Below, piece by piece: positions 11,363 through 60,690 of a stretch of DNA of 64,000 nt; positions within the stretch are counted from its first letter, which is position 1, and every line of letters begins with the position of its first letter. A program made the translations under genes and the position numbers. This DNA comes from Antitrichia curtipendula. Lineage: Eukaryota; Streptophyta; Bryopsida; Hypnales; Leucodontaceae. The stretch is taken from NCBI GenBank assembly GCA_951230915.1, contig OX579636.1:22875567-22939566 (forward strand). Reading direction: 5' to 3'. The notes beneath the pieces were generated by a model. The model saw nothing but the letters and a program-made list of their open reading frames with translations, ran no database searches and was not told where the DNA came from.

Positions 11363-11635
11363 CCTGTCCCGCGGATGTGGCTAGTACGTGAGCCTGGAGC
11401 GGGGAGCAGGGAAAAAGAGAGCGGGGAGCAGCAATTGTCGTAAAAAATCCAAAAATTAAGAATTTTAATCCAAAATAGAATTTTTTTGTGAATTAAATTT
11501 TTAAAAATCTAAATTTAGAAAAATTGGGACCTATGACCATGGGTTCAGAAGAGCCTACTACCATCAAAAATTGAAGAAAGTACGTGTGAGAAAGAGGGAG
11601 AACTAAAAATTAAGTTGGGAAATGAGACAATGTGA

Positions 11636-11900
11636 GGAACAAAAAGAAAGACAGAGAATTTGAAAACTAAAAAAAAAATGGAAAAAACAAGAAGCTGGAG
11701 AAGAGGAGGAACAAAGAGCAATAGGGAGAGGAGGTGGCAGAGAGAAGGAGAACTTAAACCAATAAAAAGGGCAAGGGAGAAGAAGAGTGAGAGTGAGGGA
11801 AAAAAGAATATGGAAGATGAGAGAAGGAGAGGAAGAGTTTGAGAGACGGAGGGCTCAAGGAAGAGAGGGAGAAGTTGAGGGAGAAAGACGGAGAATATAA
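11636..11900 (+). repeat. Purine-rich (GA) low-complexity tract
   Basis: About 260 bases of nearly pure A/G on the plus strand, subterminal in the large element. It creates a spurious lysine/arginine/glutamate-rich frame at 11660-11842 that I do not regard as a gene. Confidence 0.8.
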
Positions 11901-12381
11901 AAACCCAATGAGTAAATAAAAGTGGATGAAAAAGAGGGCTACAAGCAATATAGATTAAAAGGAGTTATAGATTCAAGTGTGCTTTAGATGGACTTTAGAA
12001 TCTCAGAAGCAACTTTTGAGAAAGTTTACACGTATCAAATTCATAGGGCCATGTTCACTCTTGCCCAAACATGCATAATTCAAAGTAGGCAATTTACATA
12101 ATATTTTTGAACTTGAGCTTGGAGCTCACCTGCATTTAATGTATTATGACAATAAGTATTTGAATAGCTAGAAATGTTCCAAAATTTGAATGGGTCCATC
12201 TAAATGGTCAATAAAGAGTGCAGCACAGGAGTGGGATATGCATACCATAATTCCTAATCATAGTTAGATTTAGTTACCAACATTTTCCAGAGAACAATCA
12301 AATAGGGTTTAGGCATGATTTCCAAAAGCTAGTAGTGGCCCTTTTAGTCTCACTACCATTTTTGAATGAATTCCATAAGGA

Positions 12382-15300
12382 TTACATTTGGTGAATTTCT
12401 GGAATGCGATAAGCTAGGATACTGCTTTCTAGAATCTGTTTCACTTCATTGAAGCTAAAAGTTGGTGCATGTATGAAAGCATCTCTCTCGGACTTTAGGC
12501 TACCTATAACAGTACAAATAAAATAAAGATGCTTGCAACTTGCCCACCTCCCATGTCTGCCCAAAGACTTTATTGCCATATCTTTGAAGTTCAGCCAAGA
12601 GCATTCAGGGAAAGTGCCAATGGTGATCAAGTACTGTTGAACTTTCGGTGGAGCTCCAGAATCAAGGGTGATAATACACCCATATCCTGGATGAGGAATC
12701 ATCGTCACCTTACGTATCTGACCCTTCAAGGTGAGAGCAGACGCACAGTTGTTGGCCTGTTGAATGTTGGGAGCATTGTTGTTCCTGCGGATGGACTTAC
12801 CTGATCTGATCTTAGGACAATCATCTGCATTAGCTGGAGTGGGAAATGAAGCAAGGCTAAAGGGAAGCTCTACCGTCCCAAAGAGTCTCCTTGGAGAGAT
12901 GACTGCACGCTGTGGTAATTGGAAGCCAGCACTCTCTAAATCAAGGATTTCCTTCTTGGAAAGGTTGGTCCCAATCTTCACTGGCCATATACTTGGGATG
13001 TCCGATTTGGACTGTACCCACTTCCGCTTTGTACCTTTGACACAACGCTCGACGTCATCGTTGCAGAAGAAGAACTCCATTGTCTCCGGCCTCTTCTTGT
13101 GAGCGTTTTGTATGACTCCAGTGTATGTGGGGGCTGTAGTGGATTTGTTGCACTGAACAATCTTGGCCTTGCACTTCTTCTTGGTGATAGCTTGCTGGGC
13201 GAAGCAAGCCTTTGCTGAGGTCTTGGGCAACCTTGCAATGTGCCACTCCGTCTCCTTACAAGCAGTTTCGTATACAACAGTCACATAACTAGTTCTCCCT
13301 ACGTCGGTCGTCATAACTTGGTTGTTGAGTTCTTTGTCCTCTTGCAGCTCAGAAGAGAGTTCTTCCATTACATCGGGAAGACTGCAGCTCGCATGGTTAG
13401 CTCGGCTTGACCTGGTTGCAATTCGTGGACGAGAGAAGTTTACCTTACCGGCCGGTGTGATTCGCCTTCAAAACCGAGAGGAACATCGGCTTTTCGCTTT
13501 TGGGAGCGAAAGACTTCCTTGCCAGCCAAATGAGGGTCACGAGTGCAGAAGAGCTCTGCTCCTGGCAGTTTGGCCATAGCAACGTTTAGCACTTTGGGGT
13601 CACCAGTTCGTTCGGCTGTGCGTTGGGCAGCGCGAAGCTGCAATTCTTCTTTCCCAGGACTAGTACCAGCGCGGTCGCCCTTTAGGTATTGGAAATATCG
13701 GACAATCTGCATGAGTGCCCGGATGAAATCATCGACAGTAGCAGTATACAAATCAGTTCCTCGGTTGCCAGACTGCTGATTCCATTTGTGGTGCATTGAT
13801 TCGGCGAGATTACAAGAGGACATCTCAGCAAGCTCCAATTCGGTGAGATCCTGCCATGACAAAGATACAGACAAAAATCAATGGAAGAAATTAGGAACCA
13901 GAATGCCCCAAAGAGAAGCCAGTGTCATATGCAAAGTGACAAACAATAGCGAACTTACCAATTGCATAAATCCACCCCATTGGCGATAGCGGAAGTGCCA
14001 AAATGCCAACCAAAGCTCTAAACGGCTCAATCCCTCGTCGGATGTGGCCCCGGAGGAGAGCCACCATGCACGAATGGCAAGATATAGAGTTTCGGATTCT
14101 GAAGATGAAGCTGCATTTTTGTACTGCCTACAGAGCTGACGGTGATGGTGTTGGAGGTCGGCATGGATATCGGCCTTCGTATGCTTTTCAAGGGATTGGG
14201 CCCAATGGAATAGGCACGTCCTCTCTTGGTCCTTCATGGGAATCGTGGCATCACCACTACCGTAAATCACCCTAACCGCATTCCAGTTTGCTTGCGTGCT
14301 GTCCGCCATGAAGCCCTTGAACTTTGGTGATGGAACATCGTGCCTTGCCATGACATCATTTATGTTCTTCCAAAGTACCATCTGAGCAATAGCATCCTCT
14401 GACTGCATATCACATACCGCAATTGTCATGACTCGACAATACGCGGAGTCATACACATGGCAAGCCATGGTGGTCCAATGCTTGACTCTTTTGACGTGAT
14501 CAAACATAATCCACGATTTCTCCAAATCTCCTCCAGGCTGCATTCGTTTGACCAAGTGAATGCCAGATCCGGGCCTACCTCGGACATCTTGAAAACATAT
14601 ACCTTGTCTGAGTCGGAGCCTTGTCCCGGAAACTTGTTCTCCTGCACGTAGGCCCAATGGCTACAGCCTCTGAGTGTGGCGATGCCGTCCATGACTCCAA
14701 ATCTTCGAATGTACCTAAACGCAGTGACGTCGTTCTTGATGCTTGGGGAGCTCATGTACTTGCACTTCTCAAGAACAGGGACTAACTCCTCCAGATCGAA
14801 TTTTTGAACTTTCGCCCCTTCTGGATTAATGAGTAACACACCGACGAGTTCCTTACTAGCCTCCATGACAATTGCAGAGTTAGTGGCCTTGGGTGTCCTC
14901 TCGACCTGCTCCTGAATGAGTTGGCGCGTTTTCTCCTTGATCTCTTGATCTTCACCCACCTTTACAGGATGGTCATGAACTCCCAGATGCAGGCAAGCAC
15001 GAGTCATGTTAGCATCTCCGTAGACATAATAGACTCTAGCAACACAAGTTGCAACACAGGTCGGTGGAATTTTACAGATTTTGCAGACAAGTGTCGACCC
15101 AGCAAGTGCGGATTGGCCAGCCGGAATTGTCTTCACAGTGAATCCATCCCATTCCCTCTCATTGACCTCGGAGGTGCGATGAATGCGGGTAGTGTATTCA
15201 CACTTTTGATTGTCACAGCGGAGGTGGCCAATGCACGTAGAAGTGCGAAATGTCAAGCTGACATGACTCTTGATATTTGAAGTAACTGTTTTGGTCCAAG

Positions 15301-16066
15301 CATGACCATCATGATGCTTGTCCATTCCATGCATCATATGGAATGGACCGGTCTTTACTACTGGTGGTAATTCAAAAAGCACATCTCCACTAAATGTAGG
15401 AGGGAGAAACTTGACCCTCTGGACGCAAAGAGTTTCAAAATCAAGTGTTTTGAAAACATTCCTAACTCCTTTAATATCCCGAATTCTCTTCAAGGAATCA
15501 ACAACACTAAGGCACTCCTGAGTAAAGACGAGGGGTGAGGGATGATTCAACGGAGAAAAAGACTTCAAACATGACTCATGAAAAGTGCTATTGACCAATG
15601 GAGAAGGCACGGGAAGTGGTAGTACTGGAGAGTTCCTGTCCTCATCATCACTGAGAATTGTGATGAACTCATCAGCAAGTTCCAACTTCACCCGGGTGGC
15701 CCGGGTGACCTGAACGGTGCTCGTGGATGACGGGTGGGGTGTGACAAACTCCGTGGATGCTTCAGTGATTGATTGACTCAAGCCGTATACTCGATATCTT
15801 CCAGCATTAAGCAACCATTTCTTGGTGGGTCCGTCACAAACTGGAGACTGGACAATAGTGTGAACCAGATCTCCGGATTGTGCATCATAGACCTCTTCAT
15901 CAATGAACATGATTTCCTCACTCATCTGGAACCTGAGGCTCAACCTCAATGAGGTGACATGAGCTACTCCGTCATTGCCTAACGGGAAATATACTGGAAC
16001 CCTTTCACTACTGGAATAGATAATAGCCAACCGAGGATTAGGGTCACAAGTAAAATGAGCAGCCAT
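12382..16066 (-). pseudogene. MULE-type transposase with SWIM zinc finger, frameshifted
   Basis: Exons 16066-13959, 13850-13444 and 13381-12382 (GT-AG, phase-consistent) encode about 1,170 residues. The start MAAHFT at 16066 has an ACCATGG context; an in-frame ATG also exists at 16114. The middle resembles the MULE domain: an Asp in WIMFDHVKRV, then GFMADSTQANWNAV, then TCLFHWAQSL, comparable to the second Asp and C/H motif of MULEs, followed by SSCNLAESMHHKW. The C-terminus has a SWIM-like finger, ECSWLNF...CKHLYFI, with Trp where the CxC signature expects the second Cys (12595-12597). Frame changes near 14569-14576 between KVYVFKMSEVGP and GIHLVKRMQPGG, as if one base were missing. A 41-nt intron would bridge it but is too short for plants. 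It should act in the nucleus on the element ends, if functional. Confidence 0.75.
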
Positions 16067-16114
16067 GGTGAAACGGATAATTGAGAATGTGAAGAGTTCT
16101 ATGAGCATTTCCAT

Positions 16115-16974
16115 GAAACAACAAAAACCATGCTACGGCCTAACATATGGGTCTGTGAACCAGTCACACAATTCAAAAGAATGACGTTTATGAATTTAAT
16201 TTACAGCAAGAATCGCCAAAATGAGATTGTGTCAGACAAGAAAGCTGAGTTTGGTAACACACAACTAATGGAGAGATATTTATGAATAAAGGTTCGTTAT
16301 GTTCATTGCACGTTGCACTTGATATCTGTGAGTAGTATCTATGTACAGGAATTCATAAATGAAGGAAGTACCTAAACCAAAGGGGTAGCCCGCTTAGCAT
16401 TTTAAATATTGGGAAATAATATGATTAGATCAATGTTGCCATTGAAAATCACATATTCGTAGAAGTATATATGATTAATGATTTAATCATTACGAGTAGG
16501 ACTAATACGATAACTTCTTCTATTAAAAGACTTCAGAGGACTGTATCACACTTAATATATTTTAGATTATAGTGCCGAAGTGTATTATGATTTACATTGT
16601 AACTTATGCCCAAGAAAATCAATAATAACATTAAATAAAGATCTGATAATCTTCTATTTAAATTAGTAGAAGTGGGTTTATTTGTACTTAGGTGAAGCAC
16701 ATACTTGTTGTTCTAAAATAGAATATAGTGTAGGTTTAACGAAACTACAAAGCACCTAAAGCATTCATGGATTATTGCCAGTATTTTGTCCATGGCTGCG
16801 GGAGTTAAATTATTCTGTCAGTACTCTATCAAAAGAACTAATGCCATAATAATCATCAATAAATTATCTGACATTTTTGGCGCAGCTGTCCTGTTAGTAA
16901 ACAATATATGATGGGTCTCTTAGGGCTCATTCTCATAATAGTTGAGGCTAGGAGCTTACATTTTTCTAGGGCAA
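16115..16974. other. Leader region of the transposase gene
   Basis: AT-rich, no credible frame. It presumably holds the promoter and 5' leader of the minus-strand transposase gene. Confidence 0.4.
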
Positions 16975-17286
16975 ATGAATGAGTTAGATGAGCCTCTTGT
17001 GTCCAATGAGACCAGGAAGAGGAGGAGACGGTCAAAGTTTAGATATTCTAGCAGGAAAGTATTGCAGCGATCGAGACTGAAGAGGGAATCATCTAAATTT
17101 GTAGAAAATCACTTGGAGTCGGTTACAAAGGTATTATCATTTCAATGTGAGATTGGTGACACTGACCATCATGACGTTGCACAAGGATCAAGCTGTCAAC
17201 GATGCCTTCATAGTATTGAGGAACATGATGGTGACGGAGTGATGCAGAGATGTGGAATATTATTTCTTCCGAGGGACGCAATCTAA
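16975..17286 (+). CDS. Possible small basic protein or exon inside the MULE
   Basis: An ATG-started frame of 103 codons. Its N-terminal half is strongly basic (ETRKRRRRSKFRYSSRK, a nuclear-localisation-like run) and its C-terminal half contains several Cys and His (SSCQRCLHSIEEHDGD). The first part could also be an exon ending at the donor-like AAG|GTATTA near 17130. It lies between the two divergent genes of the element. No family is recognised and expression is unknown. Confidence 0.25.
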   Translation: MNELDEPLVSNETRKRRRRSKFRYSSRKVLQRSRLKRESSKFVENHLESVTKVLSFQCEIGDTDHHDVAQGSSCQRCLHSIEEHDGDGVMQRCGILFLPRDAI

Positions 17287-18060
17287 AGGTTAGTAGCGTA
17301 TCATTCTTGATGAATTGTAAGCTGTAAGGGGATTGAGAAGTTGGCTTACTATGAACAGAGGTTAGAATCAACATCATTCATGTAAATGTCACCACTGAAT
17401 AGTCTATGAACTGATCCTAAAGTACCTCATGAATGAGTTATACAAAATTGATTTCCTCTTTGTCCTTGAGAGCGTCCATGCAATATTCTCCATGAATTCA
17501 TCAGATTAAGCCTAGATTTCAGGGTTTACTCTCCTTGATGTTTTCCAAAGCAAGTGTCTGGCAGATCCATAGATGAATTCCATCTCGGACATAAAGGTCT
17601 TCACAGGGTGTTTTGATATAATATATACTGGATTGCAGCCTTATAATGTTCCGGTAGTCTTCATTGAGTTACGAGGTACGATTTGCTGAGCTTTCCCCAA
17701 GGAGCGACTAAAGATAGTTCTTTGATGATAAGCATTTGTCTATGACTTAGAGGACTGAAAACCCTAATACAGAAAAAGATGTATACAAAGACTAAAGGAA
17801 TAGCAACCACCATAATCAAAATATAGCGAACCCATGGCCCTAATTTGTATCTCTAAGTAATTAACTTCACGAGTTACTGGAAATTACGCATCTTGTGTCA
17901 CCTGATTAGAATGGACGTGGTTAATTTAAAGAACGGAAATGCGCGAGTTCCTTAGCATTCAGATGATCATTGATTTGTTCCTTATACCTTCCAGCCTTTG
18001 AGTGACCCTTTTCCTCCTAACATCCAACCTTTGAGAGATTCCTTGTCTTTTATTTTGCAG

Positions 18061-18525
18061 CCCGTGGATGCGCTCTCTGAGACTTTCGTGACTTTAAGGT
18101 GTGCGGGGGAGAGCGGGAGAGGACGACAGAACCGTGCCTTGGAGACAGGAAGAAATTTGCCGAGTCCGGGAGGCAGCGAGAGCGGCCGTCAATTACGAAT
18201 CGCGGAGGTGTCCAACGTTTCTTTCAGTGAGGGTGGGAGCGCGAGCGACTGTGACGATCTTGTCCCGGAGGTAGGAAAGCAACAGACGAGGGGAGGAGGG
18301 AGCGGGAGCGGAGGACAAAATTTCTGTCTTGAGGCACTGAAGACATTCTCGAGGGCGGGAGCGAGTGGGAGCGGCGGGCAAAGTTTCTGTCTTAAGGCAC
18401 CGAAAACATTCTTGAGGGCGGGAGCAAGCAGGAGCGGCAAACAAAATTGCGGTCTTGAGGCACCGAAGACATTCACAAGGGCAGGAGAGACCAGGAGTGA
18501 CCGAAGGAATCAGATCCAGAAAGAG
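18061..18525 (+). CDS. Possible exon with a three-copy 63-bp coding repeat
   Basis: Bounded by a good acceptor (TTTTATTTTGCAG) and donor (GAG|GTAAGG), 465 nt long and open throughout in one frame. It contains about three tandem 63-bp units encoding 21-residue repeats such as FCLEALKTFSRAGASGSGGQ (about 18300-18490). There is no ATG in the frame, so it would be an internal exon or a repeat that happens to stay open. The antisense strand is also open over the repeats. It might be a 5' exon of the downstream gene; unproven. Confidence 0.3.
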
Positions 18526-18635
18526 GTAAGGAATCATTAAACTAAATAACGCCTCCAAAGTAAGTCAGGGTTTGATCTTCGCTGGCTTCATCTCAAGGAA
18601 GACCTGAACTCCGCAGACGTTCCTGTCTTCATTTG

Positions 18636-18930
18636 GGTGAGCCGCTTCTCACGTCCTGGTGTCGTTGGGGCTTAGCTTCGGTCCCGAGGTCTTGTGTCAC
18701 ATGCCCACGGACGTTCACTGAGGCAAGGTGAAGCATGCTGTCCGCTTCCCCAGTAGGTTGAGTCTCCAGCTTCCTCGTGTGGGGGTGAGCCGCTTCTCAC
18801 GTTTTGGTGCCGCTAGGACCTAGCCTCGCTCCCGAGGTCTCCTTTCACTCACTCGTGGAGGTTCGCTGAGGCAAGGAGAATCACGCTGTCCACATTCCCG
18901 ATAGGTTGAGTCTCCAGCTTTGTCAAATGG
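18636..18930. repeat. Tandem duplication of a ~146-bp unit
   Basis: Two diverged copies in direct orientation. Each starts GGTGAGCCGCTTCTCACG, passes CCCGAGGTCT, and ends GTAGGTTGAGTCTCCAGCTT-like (second copy ATAGGTTGAGTCTCCAGC). Non-coding, moderately GC-rich, inside the large element. Confidence 0.8.
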
Positions 18931-19157
18931 TTTTCTGATTTTTCCATGATCGATAGAAGTCGAGAACGAGAGAACGGCGGGCCTGTCTTCAAAGCTCTGA
19001 GGACGACCTTGGGCCGACAGCCACTGAAAATTGATCGGCTGAAGGGCATTTTCAGTGAATTGATTTGATTGGTCCGGTTATTGTCTTACTAGCGCACTGT
19101 GCGTATTCAATCAGTAAAGCTTCCGAGTTGTTCCTCGAATCCAGTGACTGCATGTAG

Positions 19158-19600
19158 GTGGCTTCGGCGCCGAGGGGCTCTATAGATTACGTCAGGACGT
19201 GAGCTGGGGCAGCCACAACCTTATCAGTTTCTCAGCCGAAAATTGCAAGACCCTACTGCTGATGACGTCCTTCTGTCCCTCTGGTGTAGCCTCGCCGCCG
19301 AGGGACCACCACAGGATTTGCGGGATGCCATGCGCGGCAGCAGCTTTGTCATTTGGTTCCTTTTTTTTTTATCGCCGTGAGCTCGTGATCGGTTTCGGAA
19401 AATCTTCTTCGTTAGCCACGCTCTGCCATCATGAGCGTATGGATTACTTGCCTTGTCTGGACTTTTGCAGATTGGGGGAGGTGACATCCGAGAATCTCAA
19501 GAGTGAGTCTTCGTCTTTCTGCTTTTCAAAGTCTCAAATCTTGCCGTTGCTGTCCTCCGGAGATTTCACCAGGGCAGCCTCGGCACCGAGGTGTCCCAGA
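19158..19600. repeat. Dispersed GC palindromes (CCTCGGCGCCGAGG type)
   Basis: Three versions of one short palindrome occur at about 19160 (CTTCGGCGCCGAGGGG), 19290 (GCCTCGCCGCCGAGGGA) and 19577 (GCCTCGGCACCGAGG). Each could form a small hairpin or be a binding site in the leader of the ParB-like gene. The stretch has an open frame from 19199, but it starts at GTG and lacks conserved features. Confidence 0.5.
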
Positions 19601-20152
19601 GGATCTGCAACGCCGTTGTGCGCAGCTACCCCTCAGACTGAGAATCGTGTACTATCTACTGTATGGGTCTTGTATGTTCCCGTGGTAGAAAAGAGGTCAG
19701 ACAGTGTTTGGTGTAATTAGAAATTCTCCTTAATCTCGATATCGGCCATTAGAGTAAGCATTGAATTCAATCTCAGTGTTCATTCTGGGGACAGAAACAC
19801 AGAGACTGGATTTCCAGCTCTTCATCATGCACAGCCTTCATGAATGTGCAATCCCAGCGGTGACAAGTTTGCATCGTAGCTAAATCTTAGTGGTGAAAGA
19901 TCTGAGCTGTCGTAACCAATTTCTAATTATTCATGATGAACAGACTATTGATTTCATATTTGTGAACTTTTCATTCTACAAATGCATGATATTCTTTATT
20001 ATTTAAATGTCTGTTGCTCCAGTTCGCTTTCTCAATGTGCGCACATATTTTCTTGAATCTAGGAATGTACATTCGCGGTGAAAGCTGTATGGTCCGTATA
20101 CTCTAGGTGCAAGTTTATAATAATCTAATTACTCAGATTTGTCGGGCAAATT

Positions 20153-23100
20153 ATGGCTCAAGTAGGGGACACTCTGCTACATCCCGAGCCTTGTGGAGAG
20201 GGAACCTCCGAGCCACGGACGGCCATCGATATCAGTGAGGATGAGGCAGAGGAAGCCCTACTCAAGCTTAATGAAGACGAGTTGCGTAACCAACAGAAGT
20301 CAAACAGCATCCATTGCATTGAGGAAATGAGGTTATCGCCCAAGGAGGCCTCGAGGTTCGAGATACCGCTATGTCGGATGGTGTACATGCCATTAGTCCG
20401 CCCAACGCTTGCCCAGGACATCAAGAGGTTGGAGGCCGAGTTTACCCATGGATATAGGCCGGGAGCATCCGTGTTCTATGTATCCACAACCAATGAGAAC
20501 GGGGAGGAGAGGCTTGTGACGGATGTGGACACTAGTAGTTGGGGACCTCAGTGGACCTCAGTTAACGATGCATTCGAGGCCAAATTGTCCCTAGACCCTC
20601 ACTTCATGTTTTTATGTGGTCGAATGTTCTTCATTTGTGATGGAAACCATCGTTTCAAGGCATGGACAGGATACATTGACCGGCTTCATCGGAATGAACG
20701 GGAGTGGCATTATTGCGTGGATAGCATTTGCCTCGACACGAAGGGTAAGGTGGCCCTCCTAATGAACGCCATGCACGACATCAATAAGTAAGATTTCTCA
20801 CTACATTTTTTTGGATTTTCTATTTTTTTCTACAAGTACTTGTTTCTTACTGTCATTTGGTATCTTCAGGTCCAATGAGCACTCCCATGTGAAGACGAGC
20901 ATGGTGCACACACTATACCGTGTGAAGTCTGTCGGGTGCATGCCCCTCGAAAGCCTCAAGTCTTGGCTCATTGAGGAAGAATACAGGAGGTGTGTAAAGA
21001 GCCCCCACATTGAGAAGACATGGTATCCTCTGACAATCGATGTCTTTGTTGCGCTCCTCTTCAGGGTAATAATCCTACTGACTCTTTGTGTTAGTCAAAT
21101 TTCTTAATTTCATAGACATCCATGCTTATGCTAGTCACTCATTTTCAATTGCAGCAAGAGATTGGGGAGGCCTCAGATGATGCGGCAAGAAGGTATTATG
21201 ATGAGACACCGATGGAGGTCAGGACCGACGCCGGCGTTACTACGGCCATGAGGGCTGCAGCAAGAATCAAACATCAATCGTTCAAGGGCCAGTTCTTCAA
21301 GTACCTGTCAATTGCCAATCCGAAGTTCGGTGACAAGTTCCTTGAAGAGGTTCGTTTTTCTCTTGAGACTCCTCTTTGGGACCTTCTTCTTATTTCATAT
21401 TAATGTATTAACATCCCTTGTACATTTCGCAGATCACGAAGCGCTGGAGCAATAACGAAAAGCCAGAGATGACACTAGAGAAGCTTCAGCTCATTGCAAC
21501 GGCTTGTGCAGGTCCAGAGTTTAAAGTTCGGTGGCTTCAAAATTGGAATTCAAGCATCCACTCCCGTGAGGCAGTCCATTTCCCTCCTAAGGGATTTACT
21601 GAGAAGGACTTCGAAGGTTGGCTAAACAAGGCTTCATTTTGGGCAAGGGTGAGTACTCGAGATTTATAATAATCACATAGTTGAATTCATTATCAACTTT
21701 GATATTTGTTGACTCTATAAAGTTCGTGTTAGTGTTTGTTGTACTCTTCGTTTACTTCATTTCATATTTATACATGGTATTGATGAAGTTGACATTAATC
21801 ACCTAAACCCTGGCCATTGAGCTTTTCAACGTGTTTCATTTATCTTATATCCTACAGCTTGAGGACGGTGCTGTTGATCTGTTCTCGAAGAGCGTCAAGG
21901 ACGATAGCTTGGCGATAAACATGGATGTCGCTCAGAAGCCCAGGTCCATCTCCCAGTACATCCAGGCTTGGCATAATCAGATATGGGAGCATGGATTTGT
22001 TGGCTTCTTCAATGGCAAGGAGTCCTATACGAAGACGAAGGCATTCGTAAACCAGAAGCAAACAGACCTTGCTGTGAAGCGAGCCGTATATAGGTATAAT
22101 CTGAGTTCATAATCTGTTTATTATTTCATTGTTTCATTGGTATTGATGATTGTTACATAACTCTTCTTTTGCTTTGTCTTCCTTCATCAGGTACTTCAAG
22201 AGGGAGCTCCTCCCACTTGGTGCCATTGAAGAGCCCCACCTTCCGCAATACTTGACTACATGGACAAACAAGAACTCCGTTCTTTGCATGTACAATGCTT
22301 GGCATGCTCGGTTTTGGTCCCTTGCGCATCTCAGGGCGTGTTGCTGGTACATTGAATGCGGGAAGTCCTTCTGCCCAGTTGAAGAAGAGGACGCGAAGAA
22401 GGCTTCTGATGAAGCTGATAATGTTGCTCCCGGCCAAGATGATGTGCAAGAGGAGGAGGTGCAAGAGGTGGACATCTCTACGCTACCCGAGAAGGAGAGG
22501 AACAAGATTCTCAACCAGAGGACCAAGGATGCAAAGAAGGCCAAGGCTAAGGCTGATAGGGAGGCCCAGAAGGTCAAGGACAAGGCAGCGAGGGATGCAC
22601 AACGGAATGCAGAAAGAGATGCCAAGAGAGTTGGGCGATCAAGGAAGTCAAAGGCAGGTGATGCTTCTATTCCAGTGCTTGTGTTCCCAGAGGCTTCCAT
22701 TGGGTCCATGTCACAGAATCCTCGCAAGCGGGATTCTTCCTTTATCGAGCTCTCAGCTTCAAGATTGCAGCAGTGTACATCACCTGCCTTCCAAGATTGC
22801 TCGGGGGGGACTTTGCATTTGGATGAGCTTTTCCTCTCATCATCTCTAGATGCCGTTGCATCGTATTATGAGCAACACAATTCTTTTCCGAAGGAATGGA
22901 TGGATTTGCAAGCCTTTCTTGAGAAGGTATTCCCCTGCTCTTGTTTTCCATTGCATTCTGATGTCATTGTTGTTCACATGAAGTGAGTGTCATTCTAAAT
23001 TTTTTTTGACATGTGCAGCACAAATCTGACAAGGCCCGAGCCTTGAGAGGTGTTCAAGCCGTTTCCGGACTTCTCGATCTTATGGTGGTGGATATTCTTG

Positions 23101-24454
23101 AAGGTCTACCGGTTCCAACAGTGAACTCTCCTGGCTCATCCATTCCGGAGTGGAACAAGCTTCCAGATCGATTTGTAGAGACAGTTTTCGAAAGTGCCTG
23201 TGAACTGGTTCACGACAACGGGGTGCTCCTATTGTTTCATCCAGATCATCTTCAGATCAAGGCTGATATTTGTGGCTGCCTAAAGCCTTACCACTTCTCA
23301 CTCTTCAAGGAATTCATGGGAGTGATTCGCTTACCTCTGACTAGCGCCAGGAACGCTTCAATGATTGTGAGTCCATCATGCATGTTCAATTCACTCTTGT
23401 CCTAAGCACTCGCTTCACTGACTTCTCTTGTACTAATGCCATTTGTATTTTCATTTGTTTGTAGACTTTGAGATTCTGCATTCAACTTTTTGTGAGGAGC
23501 TTCCCCGAGGTACCAGCCTCCACCTTCTCCATTACGCCTGTGCCAGAGCTCGATTCTATCGGTATCAACGTCGCGGCTGATGATGTTCTCTTCAACTTGG
23601 TAACAAAGGACACACAGTGACACAGCTGATGAGAGGCACTACTCCTTGGAGAGGAGGTAGGGAGAAGGACCCTATACTTCTCCAAACGCTGATTAAGTCT
23701 ACCACGCAGTTTGGTGACATAGTGCTTGATTGCACTGCGTCCACTGGTAAGGGCTTCCTGCTGAATCTCTTTATGAAGGTGTTATGATTTCTTGTTCATT
23801 CACATTTCCTTACTTGTTCTTGGATTCAATACAGGAGCTTCTGTCCACACTTGTCGAAAGGCTGGTCGGCATTTCGTGGTCATGGAGGTGGATCAACCGA
23901 TCTTCAAGGAAATTCTGGAGACCTTCATCGTGGTCTCTGTCCCTGAGGTCTCCAAGAAGCAACGTCTTGATGCTGGAGAGGCCTCTGAGGTCTTAGTGGA
24001 TGAAGAGATTGCGGAGTCGACCATTGTTCCACGCCATAGATTCTGTAAGTAAGTTTTTATCATGCTTTGAATATGGAGGTTTAAATAAGTTAGTATTGCT
24101 ATGAATTTATTTTCACTCTTTCCTATACTAATCTCTTCATTGACTTGTTGTATAATCAGCTCGAGCTTGAGGAGTCCAACTCCTACTTTCGCCTTGCAAT
24201 CAGGACTGCTTCATAGCCCTGAGAAGTCATTTACCCTACCTGTCTATGCTGATGCAATGGCACGTGCTTCTCTACAAAGTAGACCCACTTTTGCACCTCA
24301 ACCTGGACTTGGAGTAGATCGCAGGGTCCTAAAGTATCTTGACATAGATGCTGCTGTTGATACTTTGTTTCCATCAGATTGTTCAGATTCAGAATCTAGT
24401 TGTAGATCTGGTGATATCTATGGAGACTGTAGTGGTGATAGTATATCTTCTTAG
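20153..24454 (+). CDS. ParB/sulfiredoxin-like domain fused to a DNA amino-methyltransferase-like domain (frameshifted)
   Basis: Ten exons: 20153-20787, 20870-21065, 21155-21349, 21433-21648, 21858-22093, 22191-22926, 23019-23366, 23465-23746, 23835-24048, 24160-24454; about 1,118 residues. Residues 75-200 look like a ParB/sulfiredoxin fold: a LVRPTLAQDIKRLEAEF stretch, then FFICDGNHRFKAW (DGNHRF at 163-168), like the DGxHR core. A Lys/Glu/Ala-rich charged linker follows (about 575-645). The C-terminal part resembles beta-order amino-methyltransferases: a motif IV position (LDLMVVDILEGLP), a 'LVHDNGVLLLF' strand, TPWRGGREKDPILLQTLI, then SAM-binding motif I (GDIVLDCTASTG) and a KAGRHFVVMEVD strand. 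The catalytic D-P-P-Y is replaced by D-I-L-E. In exon 8 the frame shifts near 23595-23600 (one base missing within FNLGNKGH), giving a TGA at 23618. Likely nuclear; function unknown. Confidence 0.7.
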
Positions 24455-24856
24455 ACTTTTTGCAGTTCCACTGCCTGTGGGGTTTCTACCTTTTGTATTT
24501 CCATTTATGTTTTGCAATGAGACTAAAAGGGCCACTGCCTTTGATTTCTATGGTCTTGTCTTTGTTACGTAGACTACACATTTTCTTGACTGCAATTCTT
24601 CTGCTACATTTATTTGTTTCGTACGACGTTACCCTAAACCATTGCGTGGCCACAACTTGTGGAATAGCATGTCATTTCTTATATTACTAAGTAGTGTTGC
24701 CGGCATAAATTTATCCTTTTCTTATCGCAGTTTATGTGGACCTCCTCTACAGAACTTTGTATTTTCTTTCGCTTTCGTGTTCTAGATCGTCATTCCTCAT
24801 CCACGGTTGTAGGTTAACTTTCCTACTACCCCCCTTCAGACCCTATTTTCATTATC

Positions 24857-24968
24857 ACGGTAATAGATGCTACTTCCAATATTTTGTAGAAGTGCATACA
24901 ATTATTACCGACGGTAATAGATGCTACATGTAGTATTTTGTAGAAGTGCATACATTTATTACCCACAG
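24857..24968. repeat. Two-copy 56-bp tandem repeat near the right MULE end
   Basis: Two direct copies of a 56-bp unit (GGTAATAGATGCTAC ... TTTTGTAGAAGTGCATACA), followed by a partial third start. It is subterminal in the large element; such repeats are often transposase-binding regions. Confidence 0.75.
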
Positions 24969-25135
24969 TAATAGGTCTGCCTCTTTAGGTTTGTCAAAAT
25001 TTTAAAACAACTAAAAGATGAAATCCCTGCTCCCCGCTCCCCGCTCACGTACTAGCTTTTCCCCCTGTCCCGCCCTGCCTCCTCCCCTCTGCCCTGCTCC
25101 CGCTTCCCTCCGGAACCTCATCTGATTCCTTCCAG

Positions 25136-55888: not shown

Positions 55889-58800
55889 TCAGTTCCTGAC
55901 TTCTTTTGGCAAGGCCACCAATCTTGAAAACTCATTCATATTGAGAATGGTTAACGAAGATAAGTTTCCTATTTTTTTTGGTAAGGCCGCCAACCTTAAA
56001 GATGCATTTGATTCTAGAAGATCAAGGATGACAAGATCACCACTCCGGTTGGCAAGGCCACCAAGCTTGAACATTCACTCAAATCTAGAGTGGTCAAAGA
56101 AGACAAATTCTCTACTTCTTTTGGCAAGGCCACCAAGCTTGAACACCCTCTCAATTCTAAAGTAATCAAGGAAGACAAGTTCCCTACTTCTTTTGGCAAG
56201 GTTTCCAACCTTGAACAATATCCCAAATAGAAAGCGGTCAAGGAAGATAAATTTCCTACTTTTTTTGGTAAGGTTGCCAAGCTTAAACACCCACTCAACT
56301 TAAGAGTGGTCAAGGAAGACAAATTCCCCACTTCTTTTGGCAAGGTTGCCAAGCTTAAACACCCACTCAACTTAAAAGTGATCAAGGAAGACAAGTTCCC
56401 CACTTCCTTTGGCAAAGTTGCCAAACTTGAACATCCGCTCAAATCTAGAGTAGTCAAGGAAGATAAACTGCCTACTTCTTTTGGCAAGGCCACCAATCTT
56501 AAACAACCTTGTAAATTAAGAGTGGTTGAGGCCGGCAAGTACCCCACTTTCACTAATAAGGTTCCTAAGTTTGGATACTTTTCCAAATGGCAAGTAATTA
56601 AGGAAGACAAGTTTTTAACTTCCATTGGCAAGGCCGCCAAGTTTGAACACCCAATCAAATCTAAAGTGGTCAAGGAAGACAAGTTTCCTACTTCTTTTGG
56701 TAAATCTACCAAGCTTAAACACCCTCTCAATTCTAGAGTGATTAAAGAATATAAATTTCCCACTTCCTTTCACTATAAGAAACCCGTGTTTTTTGAAATG
56801 TCACAAAAAACGTTAGATTATGTTTTTATGACATCACGCGTGTTTTCGTAGATGTCACCTAAAATTCGTTATAATTGACGGGCAAAAAACATGACCATGT
56901 TTTCAAAAAACGGGCCTAATTTGTACTTGTTATACTTTGACATCATAGAAAACGTGGTCTTTTAAAGTTCAGAAAACATGACATGTGGATGCCACGATGG
57001 CGACATGTCATCATTTTCCATCCGGGCAGTGCCACGTGGGACAATTTTTCATCCGGGCCCTTAATGACGTGGGCAGTGACGTGGCCACGGGAAAATCTGA
57101 CGTGGTTTGCCTAGTCAGCATATTTTTATTTTGTTTGAAAATTTTTATGTTGTTTTTTGAATCGTCAATTTAGACGTTTTTTGAGACATCAATTGGTGCA
57201 TACCCTATCCATCAGGCAAGATCAACAAAAAAATAATTAGTTAAAATAAATTATAAAATAAAATAAACAAAAAAGAATGTTGAATTCACCAAGAATTAAA
57301 GAAAACTTACCATCTACCATCAAGAGAATTTTTGATGGCCAAATGAAAGAATTACTTCATTAAAAGTTAATAAAAATGAAGGATAAGGACATTGTATTTA
57401 TATCCATTCTCTGCCCATGGAAAGACAAACAATATGGGATAAGTAGAATATGGTTATTTCACTTGTTTACATGTTGATGTTGTTTTTGACGTGTATATGT
57501 TCTTTTAAACATAGAGATGTTGTTTCAGACATCTCGACGTTTTTGTTGACATTTCACTTTGAACACAATTTTTTTTTGATATATCCCATATCAATTGTCT
57601 CTCTTCCACCTCCCCACCTGTATAAAGACTTTATGTTTTCATCCATGGAACACATCCATTTTCATCCATCCATTTTTCTTTTTTTTGGAAAGCATGCCAC
57701 ATCATTGCCTTTTTCCTAAATTTTTTATATAAGGTCAATATTTTTCCATTGACCTTAGTAATTTTTAGTAATTTATCCATAATGAAAGTGGACTTCATGC
57801 TGACGTGGCAGTCTATGTTTTTTGAGATGTCACAACAAAACATGAGCTTGTTTTTTTAAACATTGTTAAAAACATCTCTGTCTATGGTGACATCTACTTG
57901 TTTTCCAACTTAGTCGCACATGTTTTTTGCAACATCAAATCAAATTCACTCTTTTGCACCCGTTCACTGCTTAACGCGTGACATCTCAGCAAACATGGCA
58001 TGTTACAGTCCAACGCCAGCAAAAACAGGGTTTTCTTATAGTGTTTGGCAAGACCACCAAGCTTGAACAATATCCTAAACAAAGAGTAGTCAAGGAAGAT
58101 ATGTTCCCCACTTTTTTTGGCAAGGCCACCAACTTTGAACAATATCCCAAATAGAGAATGGTCAAAGAAGATAAGTTCCCCACTTCCTTTGGCAAAGCCT
58201 TCAAACTTGAACAAGACCCCAAATAGAGAGTAGTCAAGGAAGATAAGTTCCCTACCTCTGGGGGTAAGGCCGCCAAGCTTGGACAATACCCCAAATAGAG
58301 AGCGGTTAAGGAATGTAATTTCTCCATTTCCTTTGGCAAGACTTCCAACTTTGAACATCCACTCAACTTAAAGGTGGTCAAGGAAGACAAGTTCCCCACT
58401 TCCTTTGGCAATGCTGCCAATCTTGAACACCCGTTCAAATTGAGAGTAACCAAGGAAGACAAATTTCCTACTTCCTTTGGTAAGTCCGTCAATCTTAAAC
58501 AATTTTCTAAATTAAGAGTGGTTGAGGCTGACAAGTATCCCACTTCTGCTAGCAGGGTCAAAAAATTTGAACACTTTTCTAAATGGAGAGTGGTCAAGGA
58601 AGACAAGCTTCGCACTTCCTTTGGCAAGGCCTTCAAGCTTGAACAGTCAATTAAATCTAAAGTGGTCAAAGAGGACAAGTTTCCCACTTCTTTTGGCAAG
58701 CTTGCTAAGCTTGCACACCCTCTCATTTCTAAAGTGATTAAAGAAGACAAATTTCCCACTTCCTTTGGCAAAATTTTCAAGTTTGAACAATACCCTAAAT

Positions 58801-60690
58801 GAAGAGTAGTTAAAGAAGACAAATTCCCTACTTCTTTGGACAAGGCTACCAACCTTGAACAATACCCCAAATAGAGAGTGGTCAAGGAAGACAAGTTCCC
58901 TACTTCTTTTGGCAAGGTTGCCAACCTTGAACAATATCCCAAATAGAGAGTGGTCAAGGAAGACAAGTTCCCTACTTCTTTTGGCAAGGTTGCCAACCTT
59001 GAACAATATCCCAAATAGAGAGCGGTCAAGGAAGACAAGTTCCCCACTTCTTTTGGCAAAGTCGCCAAGCTTGAACAAATACTCAAATCTAGAGTGGTTA
59101 AGGAAGATAAATTCCCCACTTCATTTGGCAAGGCCATTAAGCTTGAACACCCTTTCAATTCCAGAGTAGTTAAAGAAAATAGGTTCCCTACTTCCTTTGG
59201 CAGGGTTGTTAAGCGTGAACAATAACTTAGATTTAGTCGCAACAAGGTATTGCTTGATGCAAAAGAATTTGGTGATTGTATGAGGAAATCAAGCCCTACT
59301 AGATCAAGAATCTTTAGTGATGCACGTGTACCACAAAAATTTGATACCTTGGTGCGCAAAGTCGCTAAAGATTTTGATGAAAGTGTATATGGCAATCTAA
59401 TTGAATATTGAGAGTTTTCTATAAGAATTGTCTCCAATTGAGAACAATGTGAAGCTACTTCCAGTATGAAATCCAAATTGTTAGCAAGCGCTTCAAAATT
59501 GCCCAAAGTATTAACCAAAATCAATAAATGAAGTTTTTTGAAATCAAAACTTTGGTCATGTTTCAACAAAGGCATATGATACTTCATAACCCCTTGCAAA
59601 GAAATTTCTTCAAGAACTTCAGCATTCTGCATTCAAAGAAACAATAGTTAGTTATAATATAATACAACTTGAAGCAAAGGCTTCAAATAAGGATTATTTT
59701 GCCTAAAATATTTCAAAACTCCTAATTCTTAAATTAATATGGGGTTGGATATTCACTAATCGCATTCAAATAAATATATGAAAAAATTCAATTTTACTAA
59801 TGCCAATCACACTAATAGATAAAAATACCTTGTTTGAAAAGCCACTTTCAGGTATCGTAGATGCTTTCCAAATTCTTGTATCATTGGCAATCATTCGGCC
59901 CATGTCACGCAGTTGGTCATGCATCTCTAGAATGTCACCATCTCCACTGACCTTCAACAATGACATGTCGATCAATCTTTCGAATTCACCCATTGGAAGG
60001 ATGCCATCTTTGGACCACAAGGGCAAGATCCTTGTTTTTGATATGCCATATGGATATACATCTCGACAAAAAAAACATGCCATGTCCAAAAACATCCTCT
60101 TTTCAATACCATCATTCAATCCGTCAAAGCTTATTTTCAAGGTATTCCAAATCTCTTCATCACCATCCAAATTCTTTCCTCTTGCCATCCTTTGTAGTGC
60201 TCGTTCCCAACTTCGCAACCTCTCTCTATTGCGGAGAAATGCACCCATTACTTTCAAACTCAAAGGCAAGCCATTGCAAGCTTCCACAATATGTTTACGC
60301 AATGCCACAAAGTCCGGTGATATAGAAGCAACACCCCAACAAAGGTGAGAGGTGAAAAGTGTTGTTGCTGCCTGTTCACGCAACAATTCAACATCCAACC
60401 TTCCCTCAATGCCCACAAATGATTTTACAGTATTCCATTGGCGTGTTGTGATAATTATTGTGGTACCTTTGCTAGCTTGAATGGTGCCAAGGGGTACAAT
60501 ATCATGCAATAGAGTTTCTTTGCTGATATCATCCAATATTAAAATAATCTTCTTTCTAATGAAGATTTCCTTCATCATCTCTTGAGCATCTTCCAAATTC
60601 TTGGGTTTCATATGATCAATTCCTAGTTTTGGTAAGACCTTGCACAATATTTCATTGAATTATTTGATTCTTTTGCACAAACATGGAGAC
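55889..60690 (-). pseudogene. NBS-LRR resistance-type gene, split by a CACTA element
   Basis: NB-ARC exon (to 59829), intron 59828-59627, LRR exon from 59626. The NB-ARC part has kinase-2 IILILDDI, RNBS-B TTIIITTRQW, GLPL (CNGLPLSLKVMG), RNBS-D FLDMACFF (TNL-like) and MHD (EMHDQLRDMGR). The P-loop and any TIR domain are missing. Upstream of 60647 there is an in-frame TAA, then a VYKDL-like stretch in another frame. The LRR part is about 27 highly regular 24-residue repeats (LPKEVGNLSSLTTL core): about 17 before and 10 after a 1,273-bp CACTA insert (56771-58043). The frame stops 16 codons into the insert; removing it and one TTT restores the reading frame. A further frameshift occurs near 56014. 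Such proteins sense pathogen effectors; this copy appears non-functional. Confidence 0.88.
56771..58043. mobile_element. CACTA-type non-autonomous element, 1,273 bp, inside the LRR exon
   Basis: Starts CACTATAAGAAACCCGTG and ends GGGTTTTCTTATAGTG, flanked by the 3-bp duplication TTT (56768-56770, 58044-58046), as in CACTA transposons. The inside has no transposase; it is AT-rich with ATGTCA/ACGTGG-like phrases. It interrupts a CTTTGGCAAG motif that recurs in every LRR unit. Confidence 0.92.

What the first reader, a model, noticed from the sequence alone, without database searches (positions are those of the whole stretch)
11373..25063. 13.7-kb Mutator-like element carrying a ParB/methyltransferase-like gene
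The two ends are inverted repeats aligned without gaps over about 42 bases, with a 10-bp direct repeat CCTGTCCCGC immediately outside. Inside, a MULE-type SWIM-finger transposase and a ParB-like/methyltransferase-like gene are transcribed outward from a shared middle. Known Mutator elements carry accessory genes (for example mudrB) or captured host fragments, but a chromosome-partition/DNA-modification type fusion as second gene would be new as far as I know. A possible role is binding or marking element DNA.
Basis: partly seen in the sequence, partly recalled or inferred. Interest (0 to 1): 0.95.

Follow-up and report, generated by a model that had tools for sequence, protein, structure and literature searches.

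The report
Two-gene Mutator-like transposon with ParB-methyltransferase-like partner
A genome that is likely a plant's holds dozens of close copies and many more distant relatives of a large DNA element, likely of the Mutator type of jumping genes, that carries beside its transposase gene a second gene resembling bacterial DNA-methylating and, more weakly, DNA-partition proteins, whose product is predicted to act on the element's own DNA.

Summary
Window 11373-25063 is one copy of a recurring transposon: inverted ends (31 of 33 core bases), an exact 10-bp target duplication, a transposase gene with DDE and SWIM motifs, and a ParB-/methyltransferase-like gene, transcribed outward. In the same 400-Mb genome 40 of 42 close transposase hits (window included) have the second gene downstream on the opposite strand, 30 of 40 left ends have a right end, and 11 of 12 other copies with both ends found show a 10-bp duplication in the same register. 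Divergent copies keep the plan where tested. Both genes show purifying selection (dN/dS 0.12-0.20). Two corrections: ParB-methyltransferase accessory genes are already reported in algal transposons (Sola1 of Ectocarpus), so the Mutator-type carrier and plant-like host are what is added; and the catalytic DPPY motif is absent in all 39 copies read (D[IVM]PEG in 35), so DNA methylation is doubtful and a DNA-binding accessory role likelier. The window copy is broken: two frameshifts in the transposase, one in the second gene.

The parts
11363..11372 (.). left copy of the 10-bp target-site duplication CCTGTCCCGC
11373..11412 (+). left terminal inverted repeat (outer GGATGTG, core GCTAGTACGTGAGC...)
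12334..12352 (-). 19-nt motif TGAGACTAAAAGGGCCACT just after the transposase stop codon; identical to the one after the second gene
12382..13850 (-). transposase exon 2: candidate third catalytic residue (CNLAE), SWIM-like finger (second Cys reads Trp in this copy); frameshift near 13440
13851..13958 (-). transposase intron (GT-AG), at the same place as in relative L001
13959..16066 (-). transposase exon 1 (start codon inferred): N-terminal Cys/His cluster, candidate first two catalytic Asp (MFDHVK, GFMADS); frameshift between about 14582 and 14567
16133..20152 (.). central region between the two genes; tandem repeats at 18287-18487 and 18635-18920; of its last 1.5 kb only the last ~200 bp match in about half of 30 copies (14-18, window included), the rest in 5-13
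20153..20787 (+). second gene, exon 1: ParB-like domain with DGNHR motif
20870..22926 (+). second gene, exons 2-6 (20870-21065, 21155-21349, 21433-21648, 21858-22093, 22191-22926); Lys/Glu-rich stretch in exon 6
   Evidence: predicted from GT-AG and open frame, no RNA evidence
23019..23366 (+). second gene, exon 7: methyltransferase-like motif IV region (VVDILEGLP here; VVDIPEGLP in most close copies)
23835..24454 (+). second gene, last exons (23835-24048, 24160-24454), stop at 24454
24518..24536 (+). 19-nt motif TGAGACTAAAAGGGCCACT just after the second gene's stop codon
25024..25063 (-). right terminal inverted repeat (outer GGGAAAA)
25064..25073 (.). right copy of the 10-bp target-site duplication

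Best explanation
This is one copy of a 13-14-kb DNA transposon, likely of the Mutator superfamily, whose copies carry two outward-transcribed genes: a transposase with DDE-like and SWIM motifs that is predicted to move the element, and a ParB-/methyltransferase-like gene whose protein is predicted to bind the element's own DNA and likely helps it evade silencing or assemble for transposition. Shown: the recurring unit, its ends, the 10-bp target duplications, the co-inheritance of both genes in the close family and purifying selection on both. Inferred: the transposase cuts at the inverted ends, and the second protein recognises element DNA (possibly the 19-nt motif after both genes). An accessory role by binding, comparable to anti-silencing VANC of Arabidopsis VANDAL elements, seems likeliest to me; an ordinary adenine or cytosine methylase is less likely because the catalytic tetrapeptide is replaced. 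The window copy is not intact: both reading frames are broken, so any movement of it would need proteins made by other copies. The stated confidence covers the element plus a DNA-binding accessory role of either kind, so it overlaps with the cofactor rival.
For: Unit: 42 close transposase hits (87% or more identical, window included); 40 have the ParB exon downstream on the opposite strand (35 at 5.1-7.3 kb, 5 at 20-26 kb), 39 the methyltransferase exon, 33 a left end, 30 all three. 30 of 40 left ends pair with a right end. 11 of 12 other copies with both ends found have a 10-bp duplication 7 nt outside the core on both sides. Divergent families: 49 of 108 transposase hits of 70-78% identity have a methyltransferase exon downstream in the divergent arrangement within 40 kb (random mean 0.92, max 6); in one family 18 of 30 methyltransferase exons have a divergent transposase within 20 kb; 2 of 2 copies of that family have related ends and 10-bp duplications. 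Transposase: an intact relative in a foreign contig, 62% identical over the core, same intron, CxC...CxH SWIM. Second gene: N6_N4_Mtase 1.6e-5, phrog_67 1e-5; DGNHR in 11 of 11 aligned members. Selection, dN/dS as ratio of sums: ParB exon 0.15, methyltransferase exon 0.20, transposase exon 0.12.
Against: No Pfam family hits the window transposase, neither by ORF nor read across its frameshifts (with about 24 residues in the wrong frame); the intact relative gives only Transposase_mut at E 0.043, next to an unrelated family at 0.066. The ParB label is sub-threshold: ParB-like phrog_1033 E 0.12 in 2 of 11 members, DUF1015 E 0.04 in 4 of 11 (its kinship to ParB is recalled, from no call), with unrelated families at similar E-values; solved structures gave two unrelated chains at E 0.82 and 1, and the one structure model obtained was unusable (pLDDT 36). 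No function of the second protein was tested. 59 of 108 divergent transposase hits had no methyltransferase hit in capped lists. One of 12 copies lacks a target duplication, one of 13 lacked a right end in the stretch fetched. dN/dS below 1 is expected for any gene needed in the source copies and does not tell the role; the 14 youngest ParB pairs (dS < 0.1) give 0.33.
Confidence: 0.6

Rival explanations
1. The second protein is an active DNA methyltransferase that marks the element's own DNA with N6-methyladenine or N4-methylcytosine, as proposed for the Ectocarpus Sola1 protein.
For: Methyltransferase motif I region found by profiles, purifying selection on exon 7 (dN/dS 0.20), conservation of D[IVM]PEG between families whose exon 7 is only about 34-46% identical, published precedent (PMC12477816, passages).
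Against: The canonical catalytic (D/N/S)PP(Y/F/W) is absent in 30 of 30 close copies (window included) and in 9 of 9 divergent copies where the motif could be read, of 10 fetched.
Confidence: 0.22
2. The second protein is a structural cofactor of transposition, for example an end-bridging or integration factor as suggested for mudrB, with no role in silencing.
For: Co-inheritance and the 19-nt motif shared by both gene ends; mudrB described as apparently required for integration (PMC6446971, passages).
Against: No biochemical data; 5 of 45 close ParB hits lie without a transposase hit and 2 of 42 transposases without the ParB gene, which does not discriminate.
Confidence: 0.28
3. The second gene is a captured passenger, as in Pack-MULEs, carried without function.
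For: Mutator elements are known to capture host genes (PMC6446971, passages).
Against: Present in 40 of 42 close copies and in divergent families, with dN/dS 0.15-0.20.
Confidence: 0.04
4. Two neighbouring unrelated elements or host genes lie by chance between similar ends.
For: None after the genome search.
Against: Pairing, distances and orientation recur in dozens of places.
Confidence: 0.01

Closest known systems
Sola1-1_Ec32 of Ectocarpus (PMC12477816; passages seen)
   Same: Large DNA transposon with an accessory protein on the strand opposite to the transposase, combining a ParB-like and a DNA methyltransferase domain; 1104 aa there, 1108 aa in my gene model here.
   Different: Different transposase superfamily (Sola1), brown algal host; the passage predicts N4mC or N6mA activity, while here the catalytic motif is D[IVM]PEG.
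[quoted passage not shown] Petroll 2025; both known here only through the citation in PMC12477816)
   Same: ParB-methyltransferase-type proteins said to lie in transposons.
   Different: Original papers not seen (the Petroll paper is not held; Iyer was not looked up by id), so the transposon superfamilies involved are unknown to me; one could be Mutator.
MuDR of maize (mudrA, mudrB) and VANDAL/Hiun of Arabidopsis (vanB, vanC) (PMC6446971; passages seen)
   Same: Mutator-type transposase plus accessory gene; target duplications of 8-11 bp.
   Different: In the passages seen mudrB has unknown function and vanC is anti-silencing; the word methyltransferase does not occur in that paper. In MuDR, from recall, the genes run inward from the ends; here they run outward from the middle.

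Membership tests
Mutator superfamily (MULE) | target-site duplication of 8-11 bp | tested here: met
   10 bp in the window and in 11 of 12 other copies with both ends found; 2 of 2 copies of one divergent family; in another family only a 9-of-10 match by eye in 1 of 2 copies
Mutator superfamily (MULE) | terminal inverted repeats flanking the transposase gene | tested here: met
   core GCTAGTACGTGAGC found at both ends in 12 of 13 other copies, one left core with a mismatch; about 40 nt, short for MULEs, which are described as commonly hundreds of bp
Mutator superfamily (MULE) | DDE catalytic triad | tested here: inconclusive
   candidate D, D and E residues are identical in the window and L001; the assignment is mine, no structure available
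Mutator superfamily (MULE) | SWIM zinc finger CxC...CxH | tested here: met
   present in L001 (CSC...CKH); single positions lost in the window copy (CSW...CKH) and in L115 (CTC...YKH)
Mutator superfamily (MULE) | match to a Mutator transposase profile | tested here: inconclusive
   no hit for the window protein; Transposase_mut E 0.043 for L001, 13.1 bits against a cut-off of 21
ParB/sulfiredoxin-like domain | conserved (D/E)G(N/H)HR motif (recalled) | tested here: met
   DGNHR invariant in 11 of 11 aligned members, exact in 26 of 30 close copies
ParB/sulfiredoxin-like domain | significant match to a ParB profile or structure | tested here: inconclusive
   only sub-threshold hits, unrelated families as good; no relevant solved structure
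N6-adenine/N4-cytosine DNA methyltransferase (beta-type order) | SAM-binding motif I region after the catalytic region | tested here: met
   N6_N4_Mtase 1.6e-5 (25.4 bits, cut-off 26.7), phrog_67 1e-5, CcrM model 1.7e-4, far below that model's cut-off
N6-adenine/N4-cytosine DNA methyltransferase (beta-type order) | catalytic motif IV (D/N/S)PP(Y/F/W) (recalled) | tested here: not met
   absent in 30 of 30 close copies and 9 of 9 readable divergent copies; D[IVM]PEG in 26 and 9 of these
ParB-methyltransferase transposon accessory proteins (Sola1 type) | sequence homology to the Ectocarpus protein | not testable with these tools
   protein sequence not available; protein database searches failed

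The most novel reading that the evidence does not exclude
A ParB-methyltransferase cassette is a portable self-recognition module that has joined unrelated transposon superfamilies (Sola1 in brown algae, Mutator here); in this lineage it has a new, conserved D[IVM]PEG active-site or pseudo-active-site class, recognises the element's own DNA, and has ridden a large two-gene Mutator expansion: at least 150 recognisable second-gene loci and, going by the loose candidate counts, perhaps about a thousand in one 400-Mb genome.
Probability: 0.35. Interest if true: 0.8.

Novelty: new variant of a known kind. Interest (0 to 1): 0.62.

Why it matters
If right, a bacterial-type DNA-binding and methyltransferase-like protein has become a standing partner of a Mutator-type transposase in a plant-like genome, after being reported with other transposons in algae. 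That points to one accessory module solving the same problem, likely escape from silencing or self-recognition, for unrelated elements, and it gives many natural variants in which the changed catalytic motif and the 19-nt motif can be tested.

Tried and rejected
Considered and dropped: chance ends; passenger capture; a 26-nt intron in the second gene, replaced by a frameshift because 10 of 10 divergent copies and 22 of 30 close copies read through in one frame, the window being one of the 8 that do not (a first count gave 0 of 30 because my spacing was wrong, corrected). A third gene in the central 4 kb was not supported: along the 1.5 kb before the second gene only 5-18 of 30 copies (window included) match. 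Viral contigs gave no relatives of either protein; bacterial and archaeal genome contigs one relative of the transposase; plasmids none; phages only distant methyltransferases (best E 3e-5) and no ParB relative (one unrelated hit at E 3). A single-sequence structure model of ParB exon 1 was useless. An empty site was not sought.

Limits of the counts: each genome protein search scored only the best 150 of 1067-1414 loose candidates, so pairing among divergent copies is a lower bound; 149 of the 150 rows entered; one search allowed up to 60 kb for ParB, 70 kb for the methyltransferase exon and 40 kb for the left end; random controls used rough contig lengths. ParB and methyltransferase dN/dS used the 30 best of 150 hits, 371 and 399 of 435 pairs (pairs of unequal length or dS 0.02 or less dropped); the transposase value rests on 7 copies (6 fetched plus the window) of 42. 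End checks used 13 of 39 other left ends. The divergent copies aligned or read were 10 of 105 for each exon.
Full report
What was checked. All of this is in the sequence. The ends match 33 of 42 bases, 31 of 33 in the core; the 10-bp repeat is exact at 11363-11372 and 25064-25073 and is the only shared 10-mer of the 100-nt flanks. A second inverted pair, TGAGACTAAAAGGGCCACT, 19 of 19 identical, lies just after the stop codon of each gene (12334-12352 minus, 24518-24536 plus). It is the longest exact inverted match with arms over 5 kb apart in the element; among 100 first-order random sequences the longest was 17.

Genes. The transposase runs on the minus strand in two exons (16066-13959, 13850-12382). 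Compared with L001 it has two frameshifts, and the second cysteine of its SWIM finger reads Trp. L001 is a 4.1-kb contig filed under a desert-crust cyanobacterial bin but carrying a relative open in both exons, with an intron at the same place (62% identity over the core); I take it for eukaryotic contamination. The second gene (20153-24454) was modelled from GT-AG signals and open frames: exon 1 is the ParB-like part, exon 7 onward the methyltransferase-like part. What the model first treated as a 26-nt intron is a frameshift: divergent copies (10 of 10) and close copies (22 of 30) read through. So the window copy is broken in both genes.

The genome. The window lies in contig C4 of a 400-Mb assembly. 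Its gene content looks like that of a land plant, perhaps a bryophyte; this is my reading by eye of the open frames (an NLR gene with leucine-rich repeats, a lipase, an AP2-type gene), not a database result. The left end recurs at 40 scored places with 84-100% identity, the right end at 40. The best 150 of 1266 loose candidates for ParB exon 1 all pass E 0.001: 45 close (75-100%) and 105 at 45-57%. The transposase core behaves alike (150 of 1414; 42 at 87-100%, 108 at 70-78%), and the methyltransferase exon too (150 of 1067).

Do the two genes travel together? In the close family 40 of 42 transposase hits have the ParB exon downstream on the other strand, 35 at 5.1-7.3 kb and 5 at 20-26 kb, perhaps with nested insertions; 39 have the methyltransferase exon; 33 a left end (28 of these at 2.8 kb); 30 all three. 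Two transposase hits lack the second gene; 5 of 45 close ParB hits lack a transposase hit, 4 of these still with a left end. In divergent copies 49 of 108 transposase hits have a methyltransferase exon in the divergent arrangement within 40 kb (random mean 0.92, max 6), and in one family 18 of 30 methyltransferase exons have a divergent transposase within 20 kb.

Are they mobile elements? In 13 other close copies the left core is present in 13 (one with a mismatch) and the right core in 12. Eleven of those 12 have a 10-bp duplication, each of a different sequence, exactly seven bases outside both cores; C1:49789951 has none. In a divergent family two of two copies end in related repeats (GCTAGCGCGTGAGC left, GCTGGTATGTGAGC right) with 10-bp duplications. 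In a third family the borders were found by comparing two copies; one copy shows, by eye, a 9-of-10 duplication, the other none in the stretch examined.

Selection. Pairwise dN/dS as ratio of sums is 0.15 for ParB exon 1 in 30 copies (median 0.16), 0.20 for the methyltransferase exon (median 0.19), both, and 0.12 for the transposase exon in 7 copies. The 14 youngest ParB pairs give 0.33 and the 31 youngest methyltransferase pairs 0.22. Both genes therefore look kept by selection in the copies that spread; this does not by itself give the function of the second one.

What the second protein is. The C-terminal part matches N6/N4 DNA methyltransferases (Pfam 1.6e-5 for the cut piece, 1.3 bits under the curated cut-off; phrog_67 1e-5; CcrM model 1.7e-4). 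Motif I reads DCTASTG or close to it where found (19 of 30 close copies in the simple pattern, 10 of 10 divergent loci). Motif IV, DPPY in active enzymes of this type (recalled), reads D[IVM]PEG in 26 of 30 close copies, with a departure in four (the window is one), and in 9 of 9 divergent copies where it could be read; the tenth could not. It is conserved, so it probably matters, but it is not the known catalytic form. The N-terminal part has an invariant DGNHR that resembles the ParB signature (recalled); profile support is sub-threshold and shared with unrelated families.

The 19-nt motif. It is present on the left in 8 of 8 close loci examined, window included (one with a mismatch), and on the right in 11 of 13 others. 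In one divergent family the right end of one of two copies has it with one mismatch, 782 nt from the border, and the left end of both copies has its 12-nt core; in another family the left ends have it with 3-4 mismatches and the right ends no match within 5 mismatches. A transposase- or accessory-binding site, or a 3'-end signal, would fit; which one is open.

Compared with the known. Mutator elements with accessory genes are known (mudrB, mutB, vanB, vanC; PMC6446971, passages). [quoted passage not shown] I did not see the cited originals. So the kind is known; the Mutator-type carrier, the plant-like host and the changed catalytic motif are what this case adds, as far as my paper searches go.

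Mechanism, with steps marked. Shown: unit, ends, duplications, pairing in the close family, selection. Inferred: the transposase recognises the inverted ends and makes 10-bp staggered cuts at the target. Inferred and less sure: the second protein binds element DNA through its ParB-like part and uses the methyltransferase-like part for binding or for a changed reaction, to hold off silencing or to help assemble the transposition complex. I put about 0.45 on an anti-silencing or self-recognition role by binding, 0.28 on a pure transposition cofactor, 0.22 on genuine DNA methylation, and little on a passenger.

Noticed in passing
window 18287-18487 and 18635-18920: Tandem repeats (63-nt x 3.2; 148-nt x 1.9) in the centre of the element, in a region poorly shared with other copies.
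   Followed up: partly
window 24856-24974: 54-nt tandem repeat (2.2 copies) containing ACGGTAATAG just inside the right end; most other right ends match only from query position 41-48 on.
   Followed up: no
L001 1-4101: Contig filed under a cyanobacterial metagenome bin carries an intron-containing Mutator-like transposase; likely eukaryotic contamination of the bin.
   Followed up: partly
G000:C2:45601126-45615254: Two ParB-methyltransferase copies with equal scores lie head to head (ParB exons about 8 kb apart, opposite strands), as if inverted-duplicated.
   Followed up: no
window 56014-60659: NLR-type disease-resistance-like gene region with long leucine-rich repeat arrays on the minus strand, by eye.
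   Followed up: no
window about 26.9-27.2 kb: Run of N (gap or withheld stretch), seen as X in the translations.
   Followed up: no
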